This document shows positions 1 to 19,439 of a DNA stretch of 53,434 bases, one piece after another. The position numbers and the translations under genes are program-made. Within the stretch, counting starts at the first letter, position 1. Every line of letters begins with the position of its first letter. The notes below the pieces were generated by a model. The model was not told the origin of the DNA. It worked only from the letters and a program-made list of their open reading frames with translations, and did not search any database. This DNA is from a virus: IMG/VR virus record IMGVR_UViG_3300037427_002834, positions 1 to 53,434 of that record. One strand, given 5' to 3'.

Positions 1-3000
1 GACGAAAGCGAACCAAACCACGCGGCAGGGAAATCCCCAACCGACGAGGCGGCTATAAAAGCCTCGAACACTTTCCACGAGCTAACTCAACCTGTTCTTG
101 CAAGATTCTTTAAGCAACATACCTTAAATATATTTAAGGGCTTTTGGAGAGATTTAAAAACAGCTAATAAATCCGTTAAAGACAGTATTCACCCCACTAG
201 GCGAATGGATTTACAGCGGACTTATAGGGAAGGCACAGTTGATGGCGTTGCCTATGTAGATAACTTATCTAGTGACCGTTGGAATACCTCTTGGACAAAA
301 GAGATGAATAAAGCGAATAGCGAAAACACGCCTTTGCAAGCTACTCAAAGATTGAGCGGTATATGTTTTCCAGTTATTAAATCTACTGGTATTGAGTGGA
401 AAAACTTTATCGCTAGCGTTAAAGGCAAACTACCCCTGTATCAGCCCTCTGGCCAACAGAGAGAGACCCGATTAGGCTTTGGCGAGAGACATTCAATTTG
501 GACCAATAATAAAATGCCCGACTCTCTTCAGGAGTACGTGGAGTTAGGCAACCCCGTAACAAGCCCCGACTCATCACCAACTGATTATCACGGTTGGAAT
601 GATAAAACCGTTGATTCAACTAGGTTCAAACTGGGACTAATCACTGAAAACCCAAACACCCTAGGCTCTTACCTAGGTTATGGTAATAACTCAGAGAATA
701 CATTTAATACTTATGACGTTGTTAAAGAGTACCAAGACATTTCATTCTATAAAGAAGATAGAAGAGGTCAAGACATCAAGCAAATAGATAATCTTTACGA
801 CGCTACAGAGGAAATTATAAACGGTTATGGGCAGAATGATTCAAGAGGTGACACTTATAATCCGGGCGAGTGGGAGAACGCGGGTGCTTGGACAGCACAG
901 GGCAAGAAGAACGACGGTAGTATAAATAACGCATTTACTGACCCGAGCACTAGGACAACAGCGTGGGCCGAGGAAATTAAAATGCCTGACGGTTCGACTC
1001 AAGGTCAAATACCAGTAAACTCAGTAAGACAAACTTTCCCAGGCAATGGAGAATGGGAGCTTTTGGGCCAAGAGCTTGACGAAGAGTTTGGTAAGTTTGC
1101 GCCCGTCTTTTCTAAAATTTACATTGACGATATAGGGGTAAGCATTGAAAAGGACGCTGATAGCGATAAATTCTTGGTTGGCAATAACCCTGTTAACGAA
1201 AAATGGGGCGACGATTATGGTGACAACCATTCTAAAGCTGTTGTCGATTTTCATAGGTTCTATGACAAGTACGTTTACCACGATTGGAAAGATAGTAATG
1301 GACAACAGAACTGGGAGAAAAACAATAACTATTGGAGCGCTTGGCACGCAGCTTATGAAGAAGGAATTAAGGGCGCATACATAATTAGCGGAACAGGATT
1401 TAACAGCGCGGAGGCCTTGGCTTCTATGTCTGGTCAGTTGATGATGTACAAAGAGGTGGTTAATAAATTCCACTTTACTGGAGAAGCACCTACGGTTGGC
1501 AGCGACGCGCAGCAGAAAAGAATCTTGACCGACAGAGCTACCGAAGCAGAAAAAGCCTCCTTTATAGGCACGGGTTACGCTCACTCCTTGGCCGACGCTT
1601 ACGCTTTAGCCTCGGACCATTTAAATCACATAGTCCAAACTTGGGTTAACACAAATTATACAACCGAAGAAAAAGCTAGATTGTGCGACTCTGTTAGTCC
1701 TTGCCCCTGCATTAACGTGCGAAGTGGTCACTTAACGAAAATAGGCCAAGACGCTAACGGTTGTCCGGTTTTCAAGAGCGAAGAACTAGCGGAAAGCGAC
1801 CTGCAAAATCAACCCGACGCTAATCTTCAAGAGATAACTAGTCTAAAAAAATCGAACGGTATCGCAGGAAGCCAATGCCACTATCAAATAACCAATGGAG
1901 AATGTAAATGGAATATAGAGCTTTGTGGAGGGGGTACGATTCCGGGAACGCCTTGGTCTGGAGAATGGGACACGGGACAAGCAAACGTTTGCGTCAAGGA
2001 TTTATTGGTTGGTTATAATGGCGACGTCGTTTCTGTTTACGCTATGGGCTGTGAATCTAGTACTGGTGGCGATGATGCTGTAACGAAAGCTTCCGCCGCA
2101 GAGGCTTTAAAGGTTGAAATAGCTTCTAAAGAAAATGACCAGTGCAATAATGCTGGGTATGGCATCGGTTGGCTTGATGGAGCAAACAAGAAGAAAGCGG
2201 ATGGCTCTCAGCAAACTTGGTCGGGCAATAATCAAGATGACCCCAATGTATTTGGTAAGTATGATTCAACTACAATCTCACAAGACCAAAGCATGAGTCC
2301 GCATTGGGTTGACGGCGTTAATTGGTATGATTGGTTGACTAGGACTGGCCAAGACGGTAAAACCTTTACAACCAGCAATCCAGAATACGCTAATTCAACC
2401 GCAACCTACATAGAGATTACTGGGGCTAGTAATATGACTGCGACGAATTTTCGTGATAAAGCGAATTTGCTCTGGGACGTATACACATTGAATCAAGGGT
2501 ACTTGTGGGCCTACGGTGGAGTGAATCAAGCTGGCAAAGTAGAACACGGGGCGAACTGCACGACTCCGAGCACTGGGGTTATGGATGGCCCTATCCCATC
2601 AACTGTTGCGGGAGTCGGGTTTGTTATCGGCGGTAACGCTACTTCTTCATCCTATACTGACTTTTATTATGCAAGAGGCCAAGGGTCCCCCAGCAACGGT
2701 TGGGGTGATTTCGTCGGTGGCGGCGGCGCCCTAAGCATGGGACAACAAGGCTTTCAAAGTTTCTTGCGCGACTATGTGAATACAACAGATGGTAAACCCA
2801 GCTTTTGTAATGACTTTGTAGACGATTTGGGCGATGAGGGCAACTTGGTTGCTACATGGTTGCCTGTGAGCTCTATCACGCATGATAATGATGGAAACCT
2901 AGAGGGCGGCAATGATAACGTTTGGTCTTCGAATGTTAGTTCATGGGGCGGGCAGTCAGTAGGACCCAACGCTTATCAAGACTCGAATGGAACCGATATA

Positions 3001-5709
3001 CAATGGAACTCCCCAGAAGTTGATTACGGCTGGAGAATAGATGAAGCTGGAACCAAGCTCAAAGCCAAATACAAAGGCTACGGATTCACTGGCTGTCCTT
3101 GTGAAACTTTTGTAACCAATTGGGCCGACGCGGCTAGAACAGAAGCTTTCCAAGCGGTTTACGACTGGCTTACAAACTCTTACACTGGAGACCCAGTGAG
3201 TTCGTTTGAGGGTGGTCAAAACTGCGCAGACAAATACGACCATAATCACGCAAGATACGAGGCCAGTTGGGGAAATGAAATTGCGGATGGCCTTTTAGAA
3301 AGCAGCACATTTGGCAGCATAATTCAGAGCCCCAGCTGTCGTCATGGAGGCTATGACGAGGGTGACACAGATGGTGAGATATCATCCCCGATTCAGCATT
3401 CGTACGTAGGCATGAGTAATTTCCCAAGTTACTATAGTCAGATGAGTTCAAATCCGGGTAATAATTGCGGCCATACCGATGTCGGAGACCTTGATTGTGC
3501 CATAGGTCCGTTGTGCGGCGCGGGAGCTGGCGCACTATCAAATGATGTCGATAACCAAATATGGTACTTGGGGCAAGACATTGAAGATGGTGGCCTCCTT
3601 GGGCATTATGGAACTGAACCGGATGGCGATAACGACTTTATGATGTGGCCCGTGGACAACGCATACAACTTTAAAAATTTACCCAATGGTTATAAGTGTT
3701 ATTCTAGAAGCATTAGTGAGGTTCGCAGTTTAGAGAAGAAAGATGGAACAAGCGTTAACAAAACTTTAAACCTCAAAGAGATTATCGTTTCCGGTAGCGC
3801 AGTTGACCCTAACGGAACCGCTAGATATGGAATTATAGCTCACGAGTTCTGGGGAACATTGACAACGCCGGGCTCCATCGATTCCCCCACCACTTATAAT
3901 TATGTTAGAATCCCTGTAAATGACGCTGACGATTGGCTGCTTTCCGCTACAGCCAAAAAATCCGTGATTGATAAAGAGGTATATGAAGTAAGACTAACTG
4001 GAGACGCTTATTGCAACTACGCGCACCACTACGCAACAGCTAAATTATACTCTACAAGTTACAGCGGCCAACTTTACGGCTCTGGAGTAACCCCTTGGAT
4101 AACTGGAGTAACAGACTGGACAAGCAAAGGCGTAGTCGCCGCTCAAGGAGAAGGCGGCAAGCCAGTTATAAACAGCTTTGAAGAAGACTATTTGGTTCAG
4201 TACGACGGCAATACCAAAGGCCTCGAAACATTCGTTACTCACTCCGCAGCAGGTGCGAACACGGGTGGCACCCTGCCTAGTCGCACGGTGGGAGGCCTAA
4301 CCGAGGCCCAGGCTCGGGGAGAAGCCGTTTATCATGGAATAAATAATCCAACAGCACCAGATACACCCAAGCAAGAGGATGGACAACAAAGCATAATCGT
4401 CGGTTACGATAAAGACGAAAAAGCCAAAGGACGAGCCCATAACGGAGCTGCTGACTACAGCGATACGCCTTACGGTGCAGCTGGTGGAGATAAAGTCTTT
4501 ATTGGGGGGTGGCCCATACATAACCAATCTATGGACCAAGGAATTATTGGCGATGAATTTGACAGGCAAAAACAAAAAGGTAGAAATATAGGCGCAGCGT
4601 TTATTGGTCAAAAAGTTGTCATATTTGACCCAGAATTCGACACCTCAAAATACACAAATACCGTGCGAGGAAAGAGTCAACTTAACCGTGCGCTCCTAAA
4701 TAGAGCTTACAAAAAATATTCGATAACAGTCGACAAAAAGAAGTTCGAGAGAGGTTCCATAGAGAGAGTCTTTGGAAACGAGCAAGCCTATTTAAATTAC
4801 ATTAAATCCTCTCAAATAAAACAGAACGTAACTATAGGCTCTTACGGAACTATTAATAGTCTTAATAGAGATTCGAAAAACATAAACGACATTCCATTTG
4901 ATGGTCTGTACACGGTTCTTGAAGGAGACTTGGCGGCATGCCCCCATTGTCAACCGAATATCATTAAGGAAGGGCAGGAGGAATCGGCCGCTGTGAAAGA
5001 CGTCATGTATTTCAATGAGTCATACATGATGGGCACCAAAGTTCAATGGGAAATTTACTCTGGTAATTACCACTTTGCCGTTCCGTTTAGAACTTATACA
5101 AGTCAAGTTAGTCATCCAAGACCCACCAATCAAGCCCAGAATGTCCGGGCTGGACATTGGCAAGAGGCGCTTAGGCCCCCAGATAAAGACAACAAAGACC
5201 CAAGGTTAGCTAGAACACAATACGCTTTGGCTGCTCACACTTACGGTCACCAATACCCTTCAACTTTAGGTTGTGAGTCTTATGGAGACGGCACCGACAG
5301 TAAGCTTGTTGAATACACAATGGTAAATGATAGACAATGGCTAGAAATTCCTTCGGGCGGATTGATGGAAATAACCAACAACCCGCTGAGGGGCGAGCCT
5401 GTGTGGGCTGGACCTAAAGCGCCTAAGATTTGCGAGTGTAGAGACTCGGACTACTCGGTGGTAGCCGCGGCTGACGAGACCGCTTGCACTAATGCGGGGG
5501 CGGGGAATACGTGGCACTGCATGGATTGGGATAACCACCCAAGTAATAAATGGACAGAGCTCGAAGGTTACTATAAGAAGACCGCGCCAAATAACGAGTT
5601 CCCTTACCAGCACTCCATCAATCTACACGAAAAAAGCCAAAAGACGGACGCCCAAGGGAATGTTAACGAAAGCATCGAGGACACCAATCCCCCCAGCTAC
5701 TCTCCATGA
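1..5709 (+). CDS. Giant Cys/Trp-rich probable virion protein, 5' end outside window
   Basis: The frame is open from base 1 to the TGA at 5707-5709, giving 1902 visible codons. The first in-frame ATG (205) is unlikely to be the true start because coding-like sequence such as AAIKASNTFHELTQP precedes it; the 5' end lies outside the window. I do not recognise the family. The protein is rich in Gly, Asn, Asp, Trp and Tyr. It carries repeated cysteine pairs (CPCINV, CPCETF, ACPHCQP, CECRDSD), often beside Ala-rich helical stretches such as LADAYALASDHLNH, and similar Cys plus Ala-rich patterns occur in the genes at 46463-49982. No signal peptide or membrane segment is visible. Its size, composition and place beside fibre genes suggest a large fibre, baseplate or surface protein. 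A group I intron begins at or just past its stop codon. Confidence 0.85.
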   Translation, partial: DESEPNHAAGKSPTDEAAIKASNTFHELTQPVLARFFKQHTLNIFKGFWRDLKTANKSVKDSIHPTRRMDLQRTYREGTVDGVAYVDNLSSDRWNTSWTKEMNKANSENTPLQATQRLSGICFPVIKSTGIEWKNFIASVKGKLPLYQPSGQQRETRLGFGERHSIWTNNKMPDSLQEYVELGNPVTSPDSSPTDYHGWNDKTVDSTRFKLGLITENPNTLGSYLGYGNNSENTFNTYDVVKEYQDISFYKEDRRGQDIKQIDNLYDATEEIINGYGQNDSRGDTYNPGEWENAGAWTAQGKKNDGSINNAFTDPSTRTTAWAEEIKMPDGSTQGQIPVNSVRQTFPGNGEWELLGQELDEEFGKFAPVFSKIYIDDIGVSIEKDADSDKFLVGNNPVNEKWGDDYGDNHSKAVVDFHRFYDKYVYHDWKDSNGQQNWEKNNNYWSAWHAAYEEGIKGAYIISGTGFNSAEALASMSGQLMMYKEVVNKFHFTGEAPTVGSDAQQKRILTDRATEAEKASFIGTGYAHSLADAYALASDHLNHIVQTWVNTNYTTEEKARLCDSVSPCPCINVRSGHLTKIGQDANGCPVFKSEELAESDLQNQPDANLQEITSLKKSNGIAGSQCHYQITNGECKWNIELCGGGTIPGTPWSGEWDTGQANVCVKDLLVGYNGDVVSVYAMGCESSTGGDDAVTKASAAEALKVEIASKENDQCNNAGYGIGWLDGANKKKADGSQQTWSGNNQDDPNVFGKYDSTTISQDQSMSPHWVDGVNWYDWLTRTGQDGKTFTTSNPEYANSTATYIEITGASNMTATNFRDKANLLWDVYTLNQGYLWAYGGVNQAGKVEHGANCTTPSTGVMDGPIPSTVAGVGFVIGGNATSSSYTDFYYARGQGSPSNGWGDFVGGGGALSMGQQGFQSFLRDYVNTTDGKPSFCNDFVDDLGDEGNLVATWLPVSSITHDNDGNLEGGNDNVWSSNVSSWGGQSVGPNAYQDSNGTDIQWNSPEVDYGWRIDEAGTKLKAKYKGYGFTGCPCETFVTNWADAARTEAFQAVYDWLTNSYTGDPVSSFEGGQNCADKYDHNHARYEASWGNEIADGLLESSTFGSIIQSPSCRHGGYDEGDTDGEISSPIQHSYVGMSNFPSYYSQMSSNPGNNCGHTDVGDLDCAIGPLCGAGAGALSNDVDNQIWYLGQDIEDGGLLGHYGTEPDGDNDFMMWPVDNAYNFKNLPNGYKCYSRSISEVRSLEKKDGTSVNKTLNLKEIIVSGSAVDPNGTARYGIIAHEFWGTLTTPGSIDSPTTYNYVRIPVNDADDWLLSATAKKSVIDKEVYEVRLTGDAYCNYAHHYATAKLYSTSYSGQLYGSGVTPWITGVTDWTSKGVVAAQGEGGKPVINSFEEDYLVQYDGNTKGLETFVTHSAAGANTGGTLPSRTVGGLTEAQARGEAVYHGINNPTAPDTPKQEDGQQSIIVGYDKDEKAKGRAHNGAADYSDTPYGAAGGDKVFIGGWPIHNQSMDQGIIGDEFDRQKQKGRNIGAAFIGQKVVIFDPEFDTSKYTNTVRGKSQLNRALLNRAYKKYSITVDKKKFERGSIERVFGNEQAYLNYIKSSQIKQNVTIGSYGTINSLNRDSKNINDIPFDGLYTVLEGDLAACPHCQPNIIKEGQEESAAVKDVMYFNESYMMGTKVQWEIYSGNYHFAVPFRTYTSQVSHPRPTNQAQNVRAGHWQEALRPPDKDNKDPRLARTQYALAAHTYGHQYPSTLGCESYGDGTDSKLVEYTMVNDRQWLEIPSGGLMEITNNPLRGEPVWAGPKAPKICECRDSDYSVVAAADETACTNAGAGNTWHCMDWDNHPSNKWTELEGYYKKTAPNNEFPYQHSINLHEKSQKTDAQGNVNESIEDTNPPSYSP

Positions 5710-5966
5710 GTATAAATATTTGAAAATTAGGAAAATAAAGGATAATATAATTGACCATATTGGGTGAATTCGGGGAAACTCTCTTTTGAGACAATCCCGA
5801 GCCAAGCCAGAAAAGGGCATAGTTTTTCTGGAAGGTGTAGAGACTAGAGGGTGAGCCCCAACAATAACCCCTCCAAGAGCGCCCAACGCCGAAAGGCGAA
5901 GATATAGTCCGAACTGCGCGGTGACGCGTAGAAGCTGTAATTAAAAAAACAGTGATAACATAATTG
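5702..5966 (+). ncRNA. Group I intron (IA2-like, T4 td-like core), no internal ORF
   Basis: The catalytic core can be folded by eye. P3 pairs 5760-5764 with 5857-5861. P4 pairs TCGGG (5770-5774) with CCCGA (5796-5800), and P5 pairs CTCTC with GAGA. P6 is a long stem, CCAGAAAA (5807-5814) with TTTTCTGG (5824-5831). P7 pairs GACTA (5842-5846) with TAGTC (5905-5909), inside the classic AGAGACTAGA and AAGATATAGTCC boxes. P8 is CGCC-GAAA-GGCG (5887-5898). P9 is a 7-bp stem capped by GUGA (5914-5931), followed by a CTGT/ACAG stem. The core and the ending ATAACATAATTG resemble the T4 td intron as I remember it, which puts the 3' splice near G5966 or G5967. The 5' splice is not certain; it probably lies near 5701-5712. 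There is no room for a homing endonuclease. Confidence 0.88.
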
Positions 5967-5970
5967 GATT

Positions 5971-6039
5971 AGACGGAAGCTAGCTTAGTGTTAGCGTTGC
6001 TCCGAGCTAAGGGCGAACTCGCTAATAAGCTATCCGTCT
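5971..6039 (+). other. Long bulged hairpin between intron and next gene
   Basis: Three perfect stems stack in register: AGACGGA (5971-5977) with TCCGTCT (6033-6039), TAGCTTA (5981-5987) with TAAGCTA (6026-6032), and TTAGCG (5991-5996) with CGCTAA (6020-6025). Each pair of stems is separated by a 3-nt bulge on the 5' arm only. The loop is about 23 nt and no T-run follows, so this is not a standard intrinsic terminator. It could be a 3' extension of the intron, a processing or stability element, or a leader structure for the gene at 6079. The pairing is seen directly; the role is not known. Confidence 0.6.
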
Positions 6040-6078
6040 GTCGGTTAACCAATAAGCAAAAAGGAAAAAGGAAATATT

Positions 6079-6480
6079 ATGGCAGCAAGGAAAAAAACAG
6101 CAAAAAAGACGAACAGTAAAGCTTCAGCCGCTAAGACCAAGTCTAAGGTGAGTCAATTATCTCAGACGCACGGTAAAACGGAGAAGTTCAAACCAACCAC
6201 TTTAGACCAAATCTGGGGTGATACAGGAATGAACAAGTATAAAACGCTTGACGAAGAAGAGTACAAGGAAAGGCTTAAAGATATGGCCAAAGTTGACCTT
6301 CAGACCCACGCGGCAGAAATAGGCTTAATTCCCATTGATAACACCACGCAGCTCAAAAAGCGTCTTTTAGCCGAATTTAAGAAATACGTCAGCTCCTTTA
6401 AGGTTCCTGAGGTCAAAAGTAATAATGACAAAAACAGGCTAAGTAAAGAAGCTCAAAAGATTCTAAATGAGGGAAAATAA
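6079..6480 (+). CDS. Small Lys-rich protein with SAP/HeH-like helical segment
   Basis: This 133-aa protein starts at an ATG preceded by a purine-rich AAGGAAAAAGGAAA stretch that can serve as ribosome binding site. The first 35 residues are a strongly basic Ala/Lys/Ser tail (MAARKKTAKKT...), as seen in nucleic-acid-binding or disordered proteins. Residues about 72-106 (DLQTHAAEIGLIPID, then a KKRLLAEFKKYV helix) resemble the helix-extended-helix of SAP/HeH/LEM-like domains, which bind DNA in some proteins. It stands between the giant gene and a small baseplate-like gene, so it may be a minor virion protein. No enzymatic motif is present. The SAP-like reading rests on the pattern only. Confidence 0.8.
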   Translation: MAARKKTAKKTNSKASAAKTKSKVSQLSQTHGKTEKFKPTTLDQIWGDTGMNKYKTLDEEEYKERLKDMAKVDLQTHAAEIGLIPIDNTTQLKKRLLAEFKKYVSSFKVPEVKSNNDKNRLSKEAQKILNEGK

Positions 6481-6863: not shown

Positions 6864-9800
6864 ATGTCGCATACTGTACAAGTCATCACTTCGGGTAAAA
6901 GCATTCAAGCTGTACCAATAAGCTTAAATTCAATCCCACCCCAAATAATCTCTGGAAGCACAGGGCCTTCAGGCCCCGTTGGTCCCACTGGTCCCGCTGG
7001 GGGAAGTGCTGATTATTGTAATTTAAATAAATCATCTACTACTGAAAATATCAATGTAACTTACGCTAATAGAGTTTCTATTGGATTTGATAATACAGTT
7101 TCTAGGTCGTCGATATTTACCCATTCTACTAGTACCAATAACCAAAAAATAACTGTATCTTCTGATGGCCTTTATCAAATAAATGTTAGCATTGGATTTG
7201 ACAACACGGGCTCTAACAGAGCTTCCCCAAGAGCTTCAATTTTTAAGAACGGCGTAGAAATAACTCAAACTAGATGCTCTGCATATAGTAGAGGTAGCAG
7301 CTACGGAGATGAAAAAACATTACAAATAAATACAGCTCTTCAACTTTCCACTAATGATTACATTGAAGTATTTGCGTGGATGGACGATGCAGATGGTTCA
7401 AATTCGGTTGATACAATCACTGGCGAAACTGAAATAGTAATTACAAGAATATCGCAAGCGGCGGCTGCTGCTGGCCCCGCTGGCCCAGCAGGAATTGCAG
7501 GGCCGACTGGCCCAGCAGGAAGCCAAGGCTCTCAAGGCTCTCAAGGCGCTCAGGGCGTTCAAGGTAACCTTGGACCCGCTGGTCCTACTGGTCCAGGAGG
7601 AGCAAACTTGGGAGCTGTTTCGCAGCACATGGTTCCTACTGTAAGTGGCGTTTATGATTTAGGGACTACAAGTAAGCCTTGGAGAAGTCTTTACATAGAC
7701 AATAAGAGTCTTTATATTGGCGGCGTTAGAGTTACAGCAAACCAGAGCAATGGTACTCTGCAAACTCAAACCTCTGGACAGTCTGCGCCAGTCCCCTTAG
7801 TTACTGATTATACTGGTTTAAATTTTCACGCTTACCCAGCTATCGGTGATTTACCTACCGCTGCCGACAAGCACGGAATGCTTGCTCACGTACATAATGA
7901 AGGCGCTGTATATTTAGCGCACGGCGGCTCTTGGCAAAAGATTTATCCAGGAAACTTAGGACCAACAGGACCCACTGGCCCGAGTCAAGGCCCAAGCGGC
8001 GAACAGGGCATTCAGGGTATTCAAGGTGTTCAAGGTGAGTTCGGCGGAAATAGTCAATCGTTTACTTTTTATACTGGCGTTCAAGACGCTAATGTAGATG
8101 CTACTTTATCAAATCGTTCTGGGCACCTTTCTGTTTACGCGCCAACAGGAATAGAGCAAAGACTCTTTTTCGACCATTATAACTCTCATCACTCTAACAT
8201 CTCTGGATGGGGAGATACAGTAAAATATCCAGGCACAATTAGAATATTCAAGGAAAATGATTCTAGTGTATTTGCTACTTATGATTTAATCAACGAAAAT
8301 CCAGCCGCAGGATTTGGCACACCTTGGCCGCAATTGAAGAGCGGTTGTTTGCATGGCGGAACTGTAAACATGAAATACAGCTTCATGAAGGGCGGCAACA
8401 CCGTCGTGGAGCAAGGCAATAGTTACAGCACTCATACGTTTGGAGATTATCAAGACAGCAATCCAAACCTAGTGTCTCAATGGACGGGAGAAATCGCTGA
8501 AGCTCTTGACCAATGGAAAAGCATTTTTGAAGATATTTATCCTAATTTAACTTTAAACTTTGTTAATATGGGAGTAGAAACAGGGGTTGTGCCAGCTAGT
8601 GATGTAGCTCCTATTTACCCAATTCCTCACCCGCAAGAACAGGGCATTGGTGATATTAGATTTTCTATGCATGAAATAGACCAGCAATATAATGTGTTGG
8701 CTCATGCTTATTCTCCGGGAGGAGTTATTGGTGCATCTGGAAATATTGGTGGAGATGTACATTTTGATGTGGATGAAGATTGGCGCTTAGATGGCCAAAC
8801 TGACCCAGGAGGTTTTAGTATTAAATACGTGACAGCTCACGAACTCGGTCACGTACTTGGAATCGGACATGACGCTTCTTGCTGCTCTGTGATGAAGAGT
8901 ACCGCAAGCTCATCTTATAATTTTGACGATATATACCCAAGCGGATTAAAGTATTCAATAGACGAAAGAGAAGCTATTGAAAGTATTTATGGCGACGGAT
9001 GGGGCTACGAAAAAAGAACAATTAAAAAAGAATCTAGCAATGGAACTTTCCAAGATGGTGATTCTGTAGTCCTTTCGTTTATCGAGGGCGGAGCAGACGG
9101 CGCAGCAGGGTCTCAAGGAGTTGCTGGGCCTACTGGTCCTTCTGGCGGTCCCGTAGGGCCTACTGGCCCATCTGGACCCAGAGGTATAACAGGCCCAGCT
9201 GGAGCTCAAGGTAACGCTGGCGCAGTAGGAGCCGCTGGCGCTACAGGAGCCGATAGTACCGTAGTTGGACCCACTGGAGCCGTTGGCGTAACTGGACCTC
9301 AAGGTTCTCAGGGTAACGCTGGCGCTACAGGAGCCGATAGTACCGTAGTTGGACCCACTGGAGCCGTTGGCGTAACTGGACCTCAAGGTTCTCAGGGTAA
9401 CGCTGGCGCTACAGGAGCCGATAGTACCGTAGCTGGACCCGCAGGGCCCACTGGAGCCGCTGGCGTAACTGGGCCTCAAGGCGCTCAGGGTAACGCTGGC
9501 GCGGCAGGAGCCGATAGTACCGTAGCTGGACCCACGGGAGCCGCTGGCGCAGCAGGAACCGCAGGAGCCACTGGACCTCAGGGAGCTCAAGGCAGTGCTG
9601 GTGCAGCAGGACCCACTGGGGCCGCTGGCGCAGCAGGAACCGCAGGAGCCACTGGACCTCAGGGAGCTCAAGGCAGTGCTGGTGCAGCAGGACCCACTGG
9701 GGCCGCTGGCGCAGCAGGAACCGCAGGAGCCACCGGGCCCGCAGGTTCAACAGGCACTCAAGGTAGCTCTGGAGGTAGCGGACCAACTGGACCAGGAGAT

Positions 9801-11684
9801 ACATATGTAACAACTTCATCCACCAGTTTAGCTATTGGAACTGGCTCTAAATCTTTAACTGTCGGCGTTGGTCTTTCTTACAGCGTTGGTCAAACCGCTA
9901 TTATCTCTTATGACAATAGCAACAAAATGGAAGGCTCTGTTACTTCTTACAACTCTGGCTCTGGAGCTCTTGTTGTAAATGTTACTTCTGTTACTGGTAG
10001 TGGCACTTATACTAGTTGGGAAGTTAATTTGAGTGGTGCTCCAGGTCCCGCAGGGCCAACAGGAGCCGCTGGAGCCACAGGAGCAGCTGGCGCAGCAGGT
10101 AGTAACGGCAGCGATGGCGCTGCTGGTGCCGCTGGCGCTACAGGAGCCGCAGGAGCCGCAGGACCCACGGGAGCCGCTGGCGCAGCGGGCAGTAACGGCA
10201 GCGATGGCGCTGCTGGAGCCGCAGGTGCTACGGGAGCCGCAGGAGCCGCAGGAGCCGCAGGACCCACGGGAGCCGCTGGCGCAGCAGGTAGTAACGGTTC
10301 TGCTGGAGCCGCTGGAGCTACTGGAGCCGCAGGACCCACGGGAGCCGCTGGCGCAGCAGGTAGTAACGGTTCTGCTGGAGCCGCTGGAGCTACTGGAGCC
10401 GCTGGAGCCACGGGAGCCGCAGGACCCACGGGGGCCGATGGCGGAGCGATTACCGTCGCCACGGAAGATATTTATACAACGGTATCATCTGACGACAACT
10501 ACTTCGATGTTATGGCTCTGTTGCATTTCGAAGGCTCAAACGCGCAAACGACAACGGAGGACGATAGCGAAAGCCGTCACACCCCCACTATGGTGGGTAC
10601 TGCGCAGCTTTCCACAGCGCAGAAGAAATTTGGGTCAACAAGTCTTCTTCTGGACGGCGACAGCGACTACGTTACTATGGCTGATTCTCCAGATTGGGAT
10701 TTCGGCTCAGATGATTTTACAATTGAGTGTTGGTTCTATTATGACCAAGCGACAGCACCGCAATATTCTACTATTTTTGATAGAGGCTCTGGAGCTGGTA
10801 ATGGTTTCAGTCCGTTTTGGGTAGCGGTTCTAGATGATTCAGGTCTTAAATTAGTAGCCACTTGTGGTACTGGCGGAAATCAAACGAATGTAATTGATAA
10901 CTATAATCTGGCAACTATTACTAACAATACGTGGCATCATGTTGCGTTGACGAGACATGGCAACAACTTCTACATCTACTTAGATGGCGTGTCCTTATCT
11001 GGCGCGGCTCAAACAGATTCAGGCGCGTTGACAGACCACGCCTACCCTGTTCTTATCGGTGCTCGTGGTCAAAGCGGACACGGAAGCTTTTGGGGCGGTT
11101 ATATTGATGAGTTCCGCATATCCAAATTATGCAGGTATCCTAGCGGTACTACATTTACGCCTTCGACAACTGGGCTGCCCGGCGAATCGAGGTACAGCCA
11201 AACAGTTGTAACAAGTGTTACGGGGGGCGGCATTTGTGCGGTAACCGCCCTTAATAACGCCACGGCAAACGAGCTTGTAACCGTTGCTTCTACAACTACC
11301 GAGTTAGACGCCGAAGCAAGCTTAACTTTTGATGATACAAATGGCCTTTACATAGCCAAGTCTATAAAAACAGCAGTAAAGACTCATAGCGCTGGCGGTA
11401 ATGTTGATTTAGATTTCGAACACGAACCCCTACAAACAGTAACTCTTAATGGTGATGCAGACTTTAGTACCCCAGTAGGAAACAAAGAGGCTGGCAGGTC
11501 AATGGTTGTTAGAATAGTTTGTGATGGAGCCGCCACCAAAAGGGACTTGTCTTTTCATGACGATTGGAAATTTGTTGGAGAGGAACCCGCGAGCATCGCC
11601 GCAAATAAAATCGCAATCTTAAGTATGACATGCTTCGGCACGAATGAGTCCGATGTTGTTTGTAGCTATGCAGTTGAAGATTAA
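6864..11684 (+). CDS. Collagen-like tail fibre with matrixin metalloprotease and LamG-like domains
   Basis: This 1606-aa modular fibre has in order: collagen Gly-x-y repeats (31-47); a C1q/TNF-like jelly roll (about 50-195); more collagen (198-250); a fibre module with DLGTTSKPWRSLYI (from about 264); a matrixin domain (about 425-710); collagen (about 743-979); a small beta domain (about 980-1058); collagen (about 1059-1193); a LamG-like domain (about 1217-1433); and a beta C-terminal domain common in phage fibres (about 1475-1606). The matrixin domain has HELGHVLGIGHD with H659, E660, H663 and H669, the Met-turn M677, the upstream LAHAYSPGG (612-620) and GGDVHFDVDEDW (629-640) metal-site segments, and a closing SIYG. 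No PRCGxPD cysteine switch is visible. It probably binds and may cleave host surface or matrix protein. Confidence 0.9.
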   Translation: MSHTVQVITSGKSIQAVPISLNSIPPQIISGSTGPSGPVGPTGPAGGSADYCNLNKSSTTENINVTYANRVSIGFDNTVSRSSIFTHSTSTNNQKITVSSDGLYQINVSIGFDNTGSNRASPRASIFKNGVEITQTRCSAYSRGSSYGDEKTLQINTALQLSTNDYIEVFAWMDDADGSNSVDTITGETEIVITRISQAAAAAGPAGPAGIAGPTGPAGSQGSQGSQGAQGVQGNLGPAGPTGPGGANLGAVSQHMVPTVSGVYDLGTTSKPWRSLYIDNKSLYIGGVRVTANQSNGTLQTQTSGQSAPVPLVTDYTGLNFHAYPAIGDLPTAADKHGMLAHVHNEGAVYLAHGGSWQKIYPGNLGPTGPTGPSQGPSGEQGIQGIQGVQGEFGGNSQSFTFYTGVQDANVDATLSNRSGHLSVYAPTGIEQRLFFDHYNSHHSNISGWGDTVKYPGTIRIFKENDSSVFATYDLINENPAAGFGTPWPQLKSGCLHGGTVNMKYSFMKGGNTVVEQGNSYSTHTFGDYQDSNPNLVSQWTGEIAEALDQWKSIFEDIYPNLTLNFVNMGVETGVVPASDVAPIYPIPHPQEQGIGDIRFSMHEIDQQYNVLAHAYSPGGVIGASGNIGGDVHFDVDEDWRLDGQTDPGGFSIKYVTAHELGHVLGIGHDASCCSVMKSTASSSYNFDDIYPSGLKYSIDEREAIESIYGDGWGYEKRTIKKESSNGTFQDGDSVVLSFIEGGADGAAGSQGVAGPTGPSGGPVGPTGPSGPRGITGPAGAQGNAGAVGAAGATGADSTVVGPTGAVGVTGPQGSQGNAGATGADSTVVGPTGAVGVTGPQGSQGNAGATGADSTVAGPAGPTGAAGVTGPQGAQGNAGAAGADSTVAGPTGAAGAAGTAGATGPQGAQGSAGAAGPTGAAGAAGTAGATGPQGAQGSAGAAGPTGAAGAAGTAGATGPAGSTGTQGSSGGSGPTGPGDTYVTTSSTSLAIGTGSKSLTVGVGLSYSVGQTAIISYDNSNKMEGSVTSYNSGSGALVVNVTSVTGSGTYTSWEVNLSGAPGPAGPTGAAGATGAAGAAGSNGSDGAAGAAGATGAAGAAGPTGAAGAAGSNGSDGAAGAAGATGAAGAAGAAGPTGAAGAAGSNGSAGAAGATGAAGPTGAAGAAGSNGSAGAAGATGAAGATGAAGPTGADGGAITVATEDIYTTVSSDDNYFDVMALLHFEGSNAQTTTEDDSESRHTPTMVGTAQLSTAQKKFGSTSLLLDGDSDYVTMADSPDWDFGSDDFTIECWFYYDQATAPQYSTIFDRGSGAGNGFSPFWVAVLDDSGLKLVATCGTGGNQTNVIDNYNLATITNNTWHHVALTRHGNNFYIYLDGVSLSGAAQTDSGALTDHAYPVLIGARGQSGHGSFWGGYIDEFRISKLCRYPSGTTFTPSTTGLPGESRYSQTVVTSVTGGGICAVTALNNATANELVTVASTTTELDAEASLTFDDTNGLYIAKSIKTAVKTHSAGGNVDLDFEHEPLQTVTLNGDADFSTPVGNKEAGRSMVVRIVCDGAATKRDLSFHDDWKFVGEEPASIAANKIAILSMTCFGTNESDVVCSYAVED
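9241..9408 (+). repeat. 84-bp perfect tandem repeat (two copies) in collagen region
   Basis: The block beginning CTACAGGAGCCGATAG occurs at 9241, 9325 and 9409, a period of 84 nt (28 residues). The first two copies are identical at the DNA level, and the third diverges after about 24 nt. Identity including synonymous positions points to recent duplication by slippage or recombination. Confidence 0.9.
9540..9733 (+). repeat. 81-bp tandem repeat (two copies plus partial) in collagen region
   Basis: The block beginning GCCGCTGGCGCAGCAGGAAC starts at 9540, 9621 and 9702, a period of 81 nt (27 residues). Two full copies are identical in DNA and the third breaks off near 9733. It encodes Gly-Ala-Ala/Gly-Pro-Thr collagen triplets. 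Confidence 0.9.
10261..10404 (+). repeat. 72-bp near-perfect tandem repeat in collagen region
   Basis: The block beginning GACCCACGGGAGCCGCTGG starts at 10261 and 10333, a period of 72 nt (24 residues), with about one mismatch between copies. A related 90-bp period is visible just upstream, where AGTAACGGCAGCGATGG occurs at 10101 and 10191. Confidence 0.85.
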
Positions 11685-18164: not shown

Positions 18165-19439
18165 ATGGCCAGAAATAGAGTAATTTATCAAAGTGAAGCA
18201 CTGTATGTGAGTCGTACCGGAACTGCCGCTCAGGGTTGTCAGGTGAACCAAGGGGCTGATAGCCTCGCTGGTAGCGCCACAATCACTGCGGGCGAAAGAC
18301 CAACGCACATACAACGTGTTCAAAATGCAAACTACAGTTTCTCGATTGAGAGACAGGACGTTAACCAATTCGGTAACCTAGCTGCTATCGACAGAATCAT
18401 CTTGAGTTCCCCCACCGTTTCCTTGGACTTCCAATATTTGGTTGGTAACATGGCGAACGAGAACACTATGGGCTTTGAGGTTAATTCTGTTGGAACTGCT
18501 ACAGGTAGCCTTGTATCAGCTATTAAGAATATTCTTGATAAGTCTGGCGATGAAAAGTGCTACTACATTAAAACCGTTGGTGAAGGTTTAGACGAGCGCG
18601 ACCAAGACCGTACCGCTGGTTCTAGCGTTATCGGTCTCGGTAACGGCTACATCACTTCTTACTCCACTGAGGGTTCAGTGGGTAACTTCCCGACTGTTTC
18701 CGTAAACGTAGAAGCTCTAAACATGAAGGTTTACAGCGCCTCTTCAGGTTTGATTCCCGCTGTTACCCAGTCTACTGGTGCAGCCAACTCCACAAACTTC
18801 TTCCAGCTTCCTTCTGGTGGTGATGGAAACGGCAAACACGCTTTGGCCGCTGGCACGAACAAGCAGTTGTCTGTTCTAAGACCGGGCGATATTACCTTTT
18901 CGTTCCAACACAAGGCCAGCCTTGCTGGTACGTATACCACTTGGGGTGATACTGCTCCTACAGCAGCTAGCAATAGTAGTTCGGACAGCTTGGAAGACGG
19001 CGAGCACGCCGCTGGCCCCAACTTGTCTCAAGCATCTGGCGACAGCGCCAAAGCAGCTAAGCTTCAAAGCTACAACGTGAGCTTCGATATTAGCCGTACT
19101 CCTCTGGAGAAATTGGGCAGCAAGTTTGCGTTCTCTCGTGAAATTGACTTCCCAGTAACGGTTAGCATGTCAATGGAAGCCATGGTTGCTGACATGAACG
19201 TCGGTGGTTTGGACCAGCTTGTTTCCGACGACGGATTCTTCCACTTGAACGTGGACTTGAATGCTCCGGGAACAACCACTGTAGTTGCTAGTTACCACTT
19301 GATTGGTGCCAAGCTTGATAGCCAAGAGTTCTCAAGCGGAATTGGTGACAACAAGAGTGTTACCTTGAACTTCAGTTCTCAGATTGGTGGACCAAACGAC
19401 ACCGACTCTGGCTTCTTTATGGAAGGTATCTCCTCCTAA
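18165..19439 (+). CDS. Major tail (tube) protein
   Basis: This 424-aa protein is beta-rich with recurring strand patterns such as ANYSFSIERQDVNQFGN, GYITSYSTEGSVGNFPTVSV, SYNVSFDISRTPLEKLGSK and DNKSVTLNFSSQIGGPND, typical of long phage tail tube subunits that polymerise as hexameric rings. It has its own upstream element and a strong intrinsic terminator directly after it, as expected for an abundant structural protein. Its codon use looks more even and G+C-rich than its neighbours, again fitting high expression. It lies ahead of the chaperone-like genes and the tape measure, the canonical position. Confidence 0.8.
   Translation: MARNRVIYQSEALYVSRTGTAAQGCQVNQGADSLAGSATITAGERPTHIQRVQNANYSFSIERQDVNQFGNLAAIDRIILSSPTVSLDFQYLVGNMANENTMGFEVNSVGTATGSLVSAIKNILDKSGDEKCYYIKTVGEGLDERDQDRTAGSSVIGLGNGYITSYSTEGSVGNFPTVSVNVEALNMKVYSASSGLIPAVTQSTGAANSTNFFQLPSGGDGNGKHALAAGTNKQLSVLRPGDITFSFQHKASLAGTYTTWGDTAPTAASNSSSDSLEDGEHAAGPNLSQASGDSAKAAKLQSYNVSFDISRTPLEKLGSKFAFSREIDFPVTVSMSMEAMVADMNVGGLDQLVSDDGFFHLNVDLNAPGTTTVVASYHLIGAKLDSQEFSSGIGDNKSVTLNFSSQIGGPNDTDSGFFMEGISS

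What the first reader, a model, noticed from the sequence alone, without database searches (positions are those of the whole stretch)
5702..5966. td-like group I intron at the very end of a giant structural gene
The fold is compact and complete (P3-P9 visible) but has no endonuclease ORF. For the plausible splice sites I tried, both the spliced and unspliced messages reach a stop within about six codons, so the protein C-terminus would barely change. Introns usually interrupt conserved codons of essential genes; this position is unusual. It may be a recently inserted or retargeted intron, or be kept for RNA regulation.
Basis: partly seen in the sequence, partly recalled or inferred. Interest (0 to 1): 0.68.

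Follow-up and report, generated by a model that had tools for sequence, protein, structure and literature searches.

The report
Phage ribozyme that makes circular RNA
What looked like a self-splicing intron stuck at the end of a phage gene is most likely a rearranged (circularly permuted) group I ribozyme between genes that cuts out and closes a small, strongly structure-conserved ring of RNA, an arrangement engineers use to make circular RNA and which I found no report of in phages.

Summary
It is not an ordinary intron: the gene's stop codon (5707-5709) lies 41 nt upstream, and there is no 5' exon, P1 or P2 upstream. The internal guide (5751-5756, UUGACC) pairs with GGUU|AA 80 nt DOWNSTREAM of the 3' splice site (U6046). 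This is a permuted intron-exon (PIE) order, predicted to release an 80-nt circular RNA (5967-6046) and to trim the leader of the next gene (ATG 6079).

Sixteen further IMG/VR phage loci share the ribozyme, the downstream 75-80-nt exon and a homologous next gene. The exon has an 11-bp closing stem (97% paired, double changes at 10 of 11 pairs) and a covarying pseudoknot. Two held-out members match its model at E about 1e-17 and 6e-21. Across 34 related ribozymes the guide and its downstream partner covary (31/34; 0 of 20,000 label shuffles). Two further PIE groups exist.

Circularisation is inferred from sequence; no RNA was tested. The circle's function is unknown. The only natural permuted group I intron I found reported is in coral mitochondria.

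The parts
1..5709 (+). giant upstream ORF (open at the window edge); ends before the element
   Evidence: ORF list; no Pfam or PHROGs match; stop 41 nt before the guide
5741..5751 (+). -10-like sequence (GATAAT / TATAAT) just upstream of the guide; a start upstream of the guide is not assured here
   Evidence: TATAAT within 42 nt upstream of the guide in 13 of 16 relatives, shuffles mean 2.5, max 8; simple promoter scan of the window alone is at chance level
5750..5752 (+). P10 strand (AUU), pairs with exon start GAU 5967-5969
   Evidence: 93.3% of cells paired, A-U<->G-C changes between members
5751..5756 (+). internal guide sequence UUGACC (wobble G at 5753)
   Evidence: pairs with GGUU|AA 6043-6048; covaries across families
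5760..5766 (+). P3 5' strand (3' strand 5880-5886)
   Evidence: 99% paired
5769..5966 (+). group I catalytic core P4-P9.1 to the terminal omegaG; P7 5842-5846/5905-5909, P9 5914-5931
   Evidence: RF00028; helices paired and covarying
5967..6046 (+). 80-nt exon predicted to be circularised; 3' splice site 5966|5967, 5' splice site 6046|6047
   Evidence: RNA model R1 53.7 bits; fold z -3.5
5971..5981 (+). closing stem, 5' strand (3' strand 6028-6039 with one bulged base, 6032)
   Evidence: 97% paired, 10 of 11 pairs with changes on both sides in 15 sequences
5982..5986 (+). pseudoknot strand AGCUU, pairs with GAGCU 6004-6008 in the hairpin loop
   Evidence: two core pairs 100% paired with changes on both sides
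6043..6046 (+). exon end GGUU (P1 partner of the guide, U6046 at the U.G splice-site pair)
   Evidence: U.G in 15 of 15
6047..6078 (+). 32-nt leader left on the downstream mRNA after cleavage (predicted 5' added G)
   Evidence: the added G follows from the known group I mechanism
6079..6480 (+). 133-aa downstream gene; a homologue follows the element in all 15 aligned members and in L256 and L306

Best explanation
The element is a natural circularly permuted group I intron (permuted intron-exon, PIE). The RNA runs guide - P3 to P9.1 - omegaG | exon | downstream mRNA. The guide at the 5' side folds onto the end of the exon (GGUU|AA) to form P1. Guanosine cleaves after U6046 and becomes the 5' end of the downstream mRNA; the exon's 3' OH then attacks after omegaG5966, aided by P10, and closes an 80-nt pseudoknotted RNA circle. 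Shown by sequence: the core, P1, P10, splice-site U.G and omegaG, exon fold, gene context. Inferred: that both chemical steps occur in infected cells, that a circle accumulates, and that the circle (rather than only mRNA trimming) is what selection keeps.
For: Core at RF00028 70.6 bits. No guide match upstream, 6/6 match downstream. Guide/partner covariation: GACC/GGUU 6 of 6, GGCC/GGCU 22 of 23, GUCC/GGAU 3 of 5; own partner in 31 of 34 against shuffle mean 19.4, max 28, 0 of 20,000; by eye a fourth class GCCC/GGGU. P10 changes in step, A-U to G-C. Exon covariation score 0.799 against 0.239 shuffled and at most 0.153 slid. Held-out members L256 (72.9 bits, E 1.7e-17) and L306 (82.6 bits, E 5.6e-21). 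In a scan using only the ribozyme 3' end, 11 of 73 distinct ends have this exon; of the other 62, most run into protein-coding 3' exons like ordinary introns. Intergenic in all 15, upstream stop 34-92 nt before the guide in 14 of 15. The exon model finds nothing in the 75 loci that hold the downstream gene without the ribozyme.
Against: No RNA evidence. Within the window's own subfamily only one P1 pair varies (2 of 15), so the strongest P1 covariation comes from sister groups. The guide test was restricted to cores with a GNCC guide, and members are related, so shuffle counts overstate independence. In the window and G002 the -10-like box sits so close that a start there could trim the guide or P10 strand; read-through from upstream genes would then be needed. 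The exon's inner B stem aligns poorly in several members.
Confidence: 0.87

Rival explanations
1. Ordinary cis-splicing td-like intron inserted at or just after the end of the giant gene, joining an upstream 5' exon to 5967.
For: Core and 3' splice site are the same as those of ordinary phage introns.
Against: No guide partner upstream, sequence upstream of the guide is not conserved beyond a promoter-like box, no P2, no frame through the element; the exon downstream is a conserved RNA fold, not coding.
Confidence: 0.04
2. Processing-only ribozyme: the permuted order serves to cut the mRNA just before the downstream start codon; the released exon is a by-product and may not be closed.
For: The cut lies 2-84 nt before the downstream ATG in all 15; the second group has unrelated exons but also cuts just before an ATG.
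Against: omegaG, P10 and a covarying closed exon fold are all retained, which cleavage alone would not need.
Confidence: 0.08
3. Degenerate or dead group I remnant kept by drift.
For: No endonuclease ORF.
Against: 97.4% of 927 helix cells form standard pairs across 15 diverged phages with 125 double-change cells.
Confidence: 0.01

Closest known systems
Group I introns, td-like phage introns (Rfam RF00028)
   Same: Core P3-P9.1, P7 guanosine site, omegaG, U.G splice-site pair, P10
   Different: Order permuted: guide at the 5' end, 5' splice site downstream of the 3' splice site; no P2; between genes; structured exon
Engineered permuted intron-exon constructs (T4 td and Anabaena PIE, cited in PMC11879131) and Tetrahymena ribozyme with the target downstream (PMC10415121)
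   Same: Same topology: ribozyme followed by the RNA that becomes the circle
   Different: Here it is natural, and the exon is a conserved non-coding fold
Coral mitochondrial ND5-717 permuted group I intron (PMC6545197)
   Different: There a protein gene is split by an 18-19 kb intron; here a dedicated ~300-nt unit is predicted to make a small non-coding circle
[quoted passage not shown]
   Same: Natural permuted self-splicing RNA that makes RNA circles
   Different: Different ribozyme family (group II), found in bacteria

Membership tests
Group I intron ribozyme (RF00028) | Core above the curated score with P3, P4, P6, P7, P8, P9 paired | tested here: met
   70.6 bits, GA 50; helices 92-100% paired
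Group I intron ribozyme (RF00028) | U.G pair at the 5' splice site and terminal omegaG | tested here: met
   U.G 15 of 15; G before the exon in all
Group I intron ribozyme (RF00028) | Guanosine-dependent two-step transesterification | not testable with these tools
   needs in vitro splicing
Ordinary cis group I intron | Guide pairs with a 5' exon upstream of the core | tested here: not met
   no 6/6 match within 300 nt upstream in the window; the match lies downstream
Ordinary cis group I intron | Interrupts a gene that splicing restores | tested here: not met
   intergenic; no frame spans it
Permuted intron-exon (PIE) group I | 5' splice site with P1 partner downstream of the 3' splice site | tested here: met
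Permuted intron-exon (PIE) group I | P10 between the guide's 5' side and the exon start | tested here: met
   93.3% paired with matched changes
Permuted intron-exon (PIE) group I | Circular exon RNA is produced | not testable with these tools
   needs RNase R and junction RT-PCR
Circularly permuted group II intron | Group II domain V and related core | tested here: not met
   no group II family among Rfam matches in 5700-6100 even at E up to 5

The most novel reading that the evidence does not exclude
Phages encode dedicated genes for small circular non-coding RNAs, made by natural permuted group I ribozymes, and at least one lineage keeps a ~76-nt pseudoknotted circle for a function of its own in the late (structural) gene module.
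Probability: 0.6. Interest if true: 0.93.

Novelty: new variant of a known kind. Interest (0 to 1): 0.86.

Why it matters
Permuted group I introns are the standard laboratory route to circular RNA, yet only one natural case (coral mitochondria) turned up in the literature searched. A family in phages would show that evolution reached the same design for making small circular RNAs, would give naturally tuned ribozymes of about 215-240 nt for circular RNA production, and would add circular RNA to the phage repertoire with an exon under clear structural selection. It also warns that 'group I intron' hits between genes in phage genomes may be misread: the 5' splice site may lie downstream.

Tried and rejected
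Ordinary intron with an upstream exon (rejected). IStron or guide-RNA element with the downstream hairpin as part of a transposon: dropped because the 3' splice site sequence matches ordinary introns directly before the hairpin and the hairpin's end pairs with the guide. Exon as a known RNA: no Rfam family besides RF00028 above chance. Exon as coding: no consistent open frame round the circle. tRNA: none. Host genomes: the subfamily pattern in 84,980 GTDB genomes gave 19 stretches, none with a group I core. Cultured phages: the nearest ribozyme DNA matches that I opened are mostly ordinary introns in terL, DNA polymerase, psbA and other genes; no isolate carries the downstream gene. Downstream protein: profile search of the PDB gave only chance-level hits; the structure job had not finished. 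An early working label of ORF 18165-19439 as capsid was dropped; it only served to find relatives and shows no similarity to the capsid-like L056 protein.

Full report
WHAT IS THERE. Rfam scanning finds one gathering-level family in the window: RF00028, group I intron, 5712-5931 +, 70.6 bits, E 5.6e-16. There is no tRNA and no endonuclease ORF in it. The upstream ORF ends with TGA at 5707-5709. The first part of the Rfam alignment, where P1/P2 should be, is full of non-standard pairs.

RELATIVES. The window is an IMG/VR record. A 424-aa ORF from the window (18165-19439) led to nine related contigs. One, G002, has a distant homologue of the giant gene (31% identical) and a group I hit directly after it. 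DNA conservation between the two starts at ATAATTGACC just before P3, runs through the ribozyme, and then continues for 80 nt beyond the expected end of the intron. The 3' end GATAACATAATTG^GA is the same as in ordinary phage introns whose next codons are coding, which fixes the 3' splice site at 5966|5967.

PERMUTED ORDER. A profile-guided scan for the downstream 133-aa gene gave 80 kept loci. In five of them it follows the same ribozyme and an exon ending in TCGGYU; in the intron-less ones I read, a terminator-like hairpin sits there, after a capsid-like gene in L056. A scan with a P3/P4 pattern and one with a guide-plus-P3/P4 pattern added members. The guide UUGRCC, immediately 5' of P3, pairs with GGYU|AA (or |GA, |AG) downstream of the 3' splice site, and with no site upstream in the window. 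P1 keeps a U.G pair in 15 of 15 and has one covarying pair inside the subfamily; P10 changes in step. Over 34 ribozymes with a GNCC guide, the downstream partner matches the guide's variable base in 31 (A to U 6 of 6, G to C 22 of 23, U to A 3 of 5), against a mean of 19.4 and maximum 28 in 20,000 label shuffles. By eye, three contigs show the remaining class, GCCC with GGGU, and L152, L223 (second copy) and L249 fit with slightly different registers. This is the order of a permuted intron-exon construct.

THE EXON. Fifteen exons of 75-80 nt were aligned. A closing stem of 11 pairs is 97% paired with double changes at 10 pairs; the two core pseudoknot pairs are always formed, with double changes; the hairpin is 82% paired. 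The covariation score is 0.799 against 0.239 in shuffles and at most 0.153 in slid controls. A covariance model finds the exon in the window at 53.7 bits and in no locus that has the downstream gene without the ribozyme. Two loci not used to build it score 72.9 (L256) and 82.6 bits (L306), both directly behind a ribozyme and before the gene. L306 came from a scan with the ribozyme 3' end only, so neither guide nor exon was in the query; of 73 distinct ends in that scan 11 carry this exon; of the other 62, most run into coding sequence. The exon does not encode a consistent peptide.

CONTEXT. All 15 elements are intergenic; the upstream frame ends 34-92 nt before the guide in 14, and the predicted cut lies 2-84 nt before the next start codon. 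The next gene is the 133-aa homologue in all 15 (38-57% identical in the 14 relatives; nine of these loci were found without using that gene). A perfect TATAAT lies within 42 nt upstream of the guide in 13 of 16 (shuffles mean 2.5, max 8 of 16), so many members look like separate transcription units; in the window itself the box is so close to the guide that this is uncertain. Two members (L071, L080) have a terminator-like hairpin after the exon.

HOW IT SHOULD WORK. From established group I chemistry: guanosine bound in P7 cleaves after U6046; the freed exon end attacks the phosphate after omegaG5966; the exon closes to a circle, the ribozyme is released, and the downstream mRNA starts with the added G. 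Circularisation and accumulation are inferred. My best guess for why the exon is kept is a stable structured RNA acting in the late programme; a rival is that trimming of the downstream leader is the selected step. The second group of permuted ribozymes (leader AGTTCTTTAAA, unrelated exons, cut just before an ATG) fits both readings.

WHAT IS KNOWN. The held literature shows one natural permuted group I intron, in coral mitochondria, described there as the first (PMC6545197); [quoted passage not shown] and laboratory PIE systems (PMC11879131; PMC10415121, with the target placed downstream of the ribozyme as here). Ten searches found no phage case. The library lacks most subscription papers and most preprints, so novelty is provisional.

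Noticed in passing
L135, L141, L148, L152, L154, L160, L171, L187, L200, L204, L208, L209, L223, L249, L250: A second group of permuted group I ribozymes with a shared leader (GTGTAAT ... AGTTCTTTAAA), unrelated exons and a cut just before a downstream ATG; L223 holds two copies.
   Followed up: partly
L320, L330, L337: A third group with guide GCCC and exon end GGGU, short exon GGGAGCACA..., probably also permuted.
   Followed up: partly
L156, L174: Possible further permuted ribozymes whose 5' leader pairs over 16-20 nt with the sequence after the exon, like the homology arms of engineered PIE constructs.
   Followed up: no
window 6079-6480: 133-aa protein with a Lys-rich N-terminus and a C-terminal part that by eye recalls SAP/HeH nucleic-acid-binding motifs; no Pfam match, PDB profile search at chance level.
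   Followed up: partly
window 6864-11684: Long collagen-like tail fibre gene; strong matches to many PHROGs tail fibre families.
   Followed up: no
L256 (contig of IMG genome 2716884425): A member of the subfamily in a viral contig that carries an IMG genome-type identifier (2716884425); if that is an isolate or single-cell genome it may lead to a testable phage and host.
   Followed up: no
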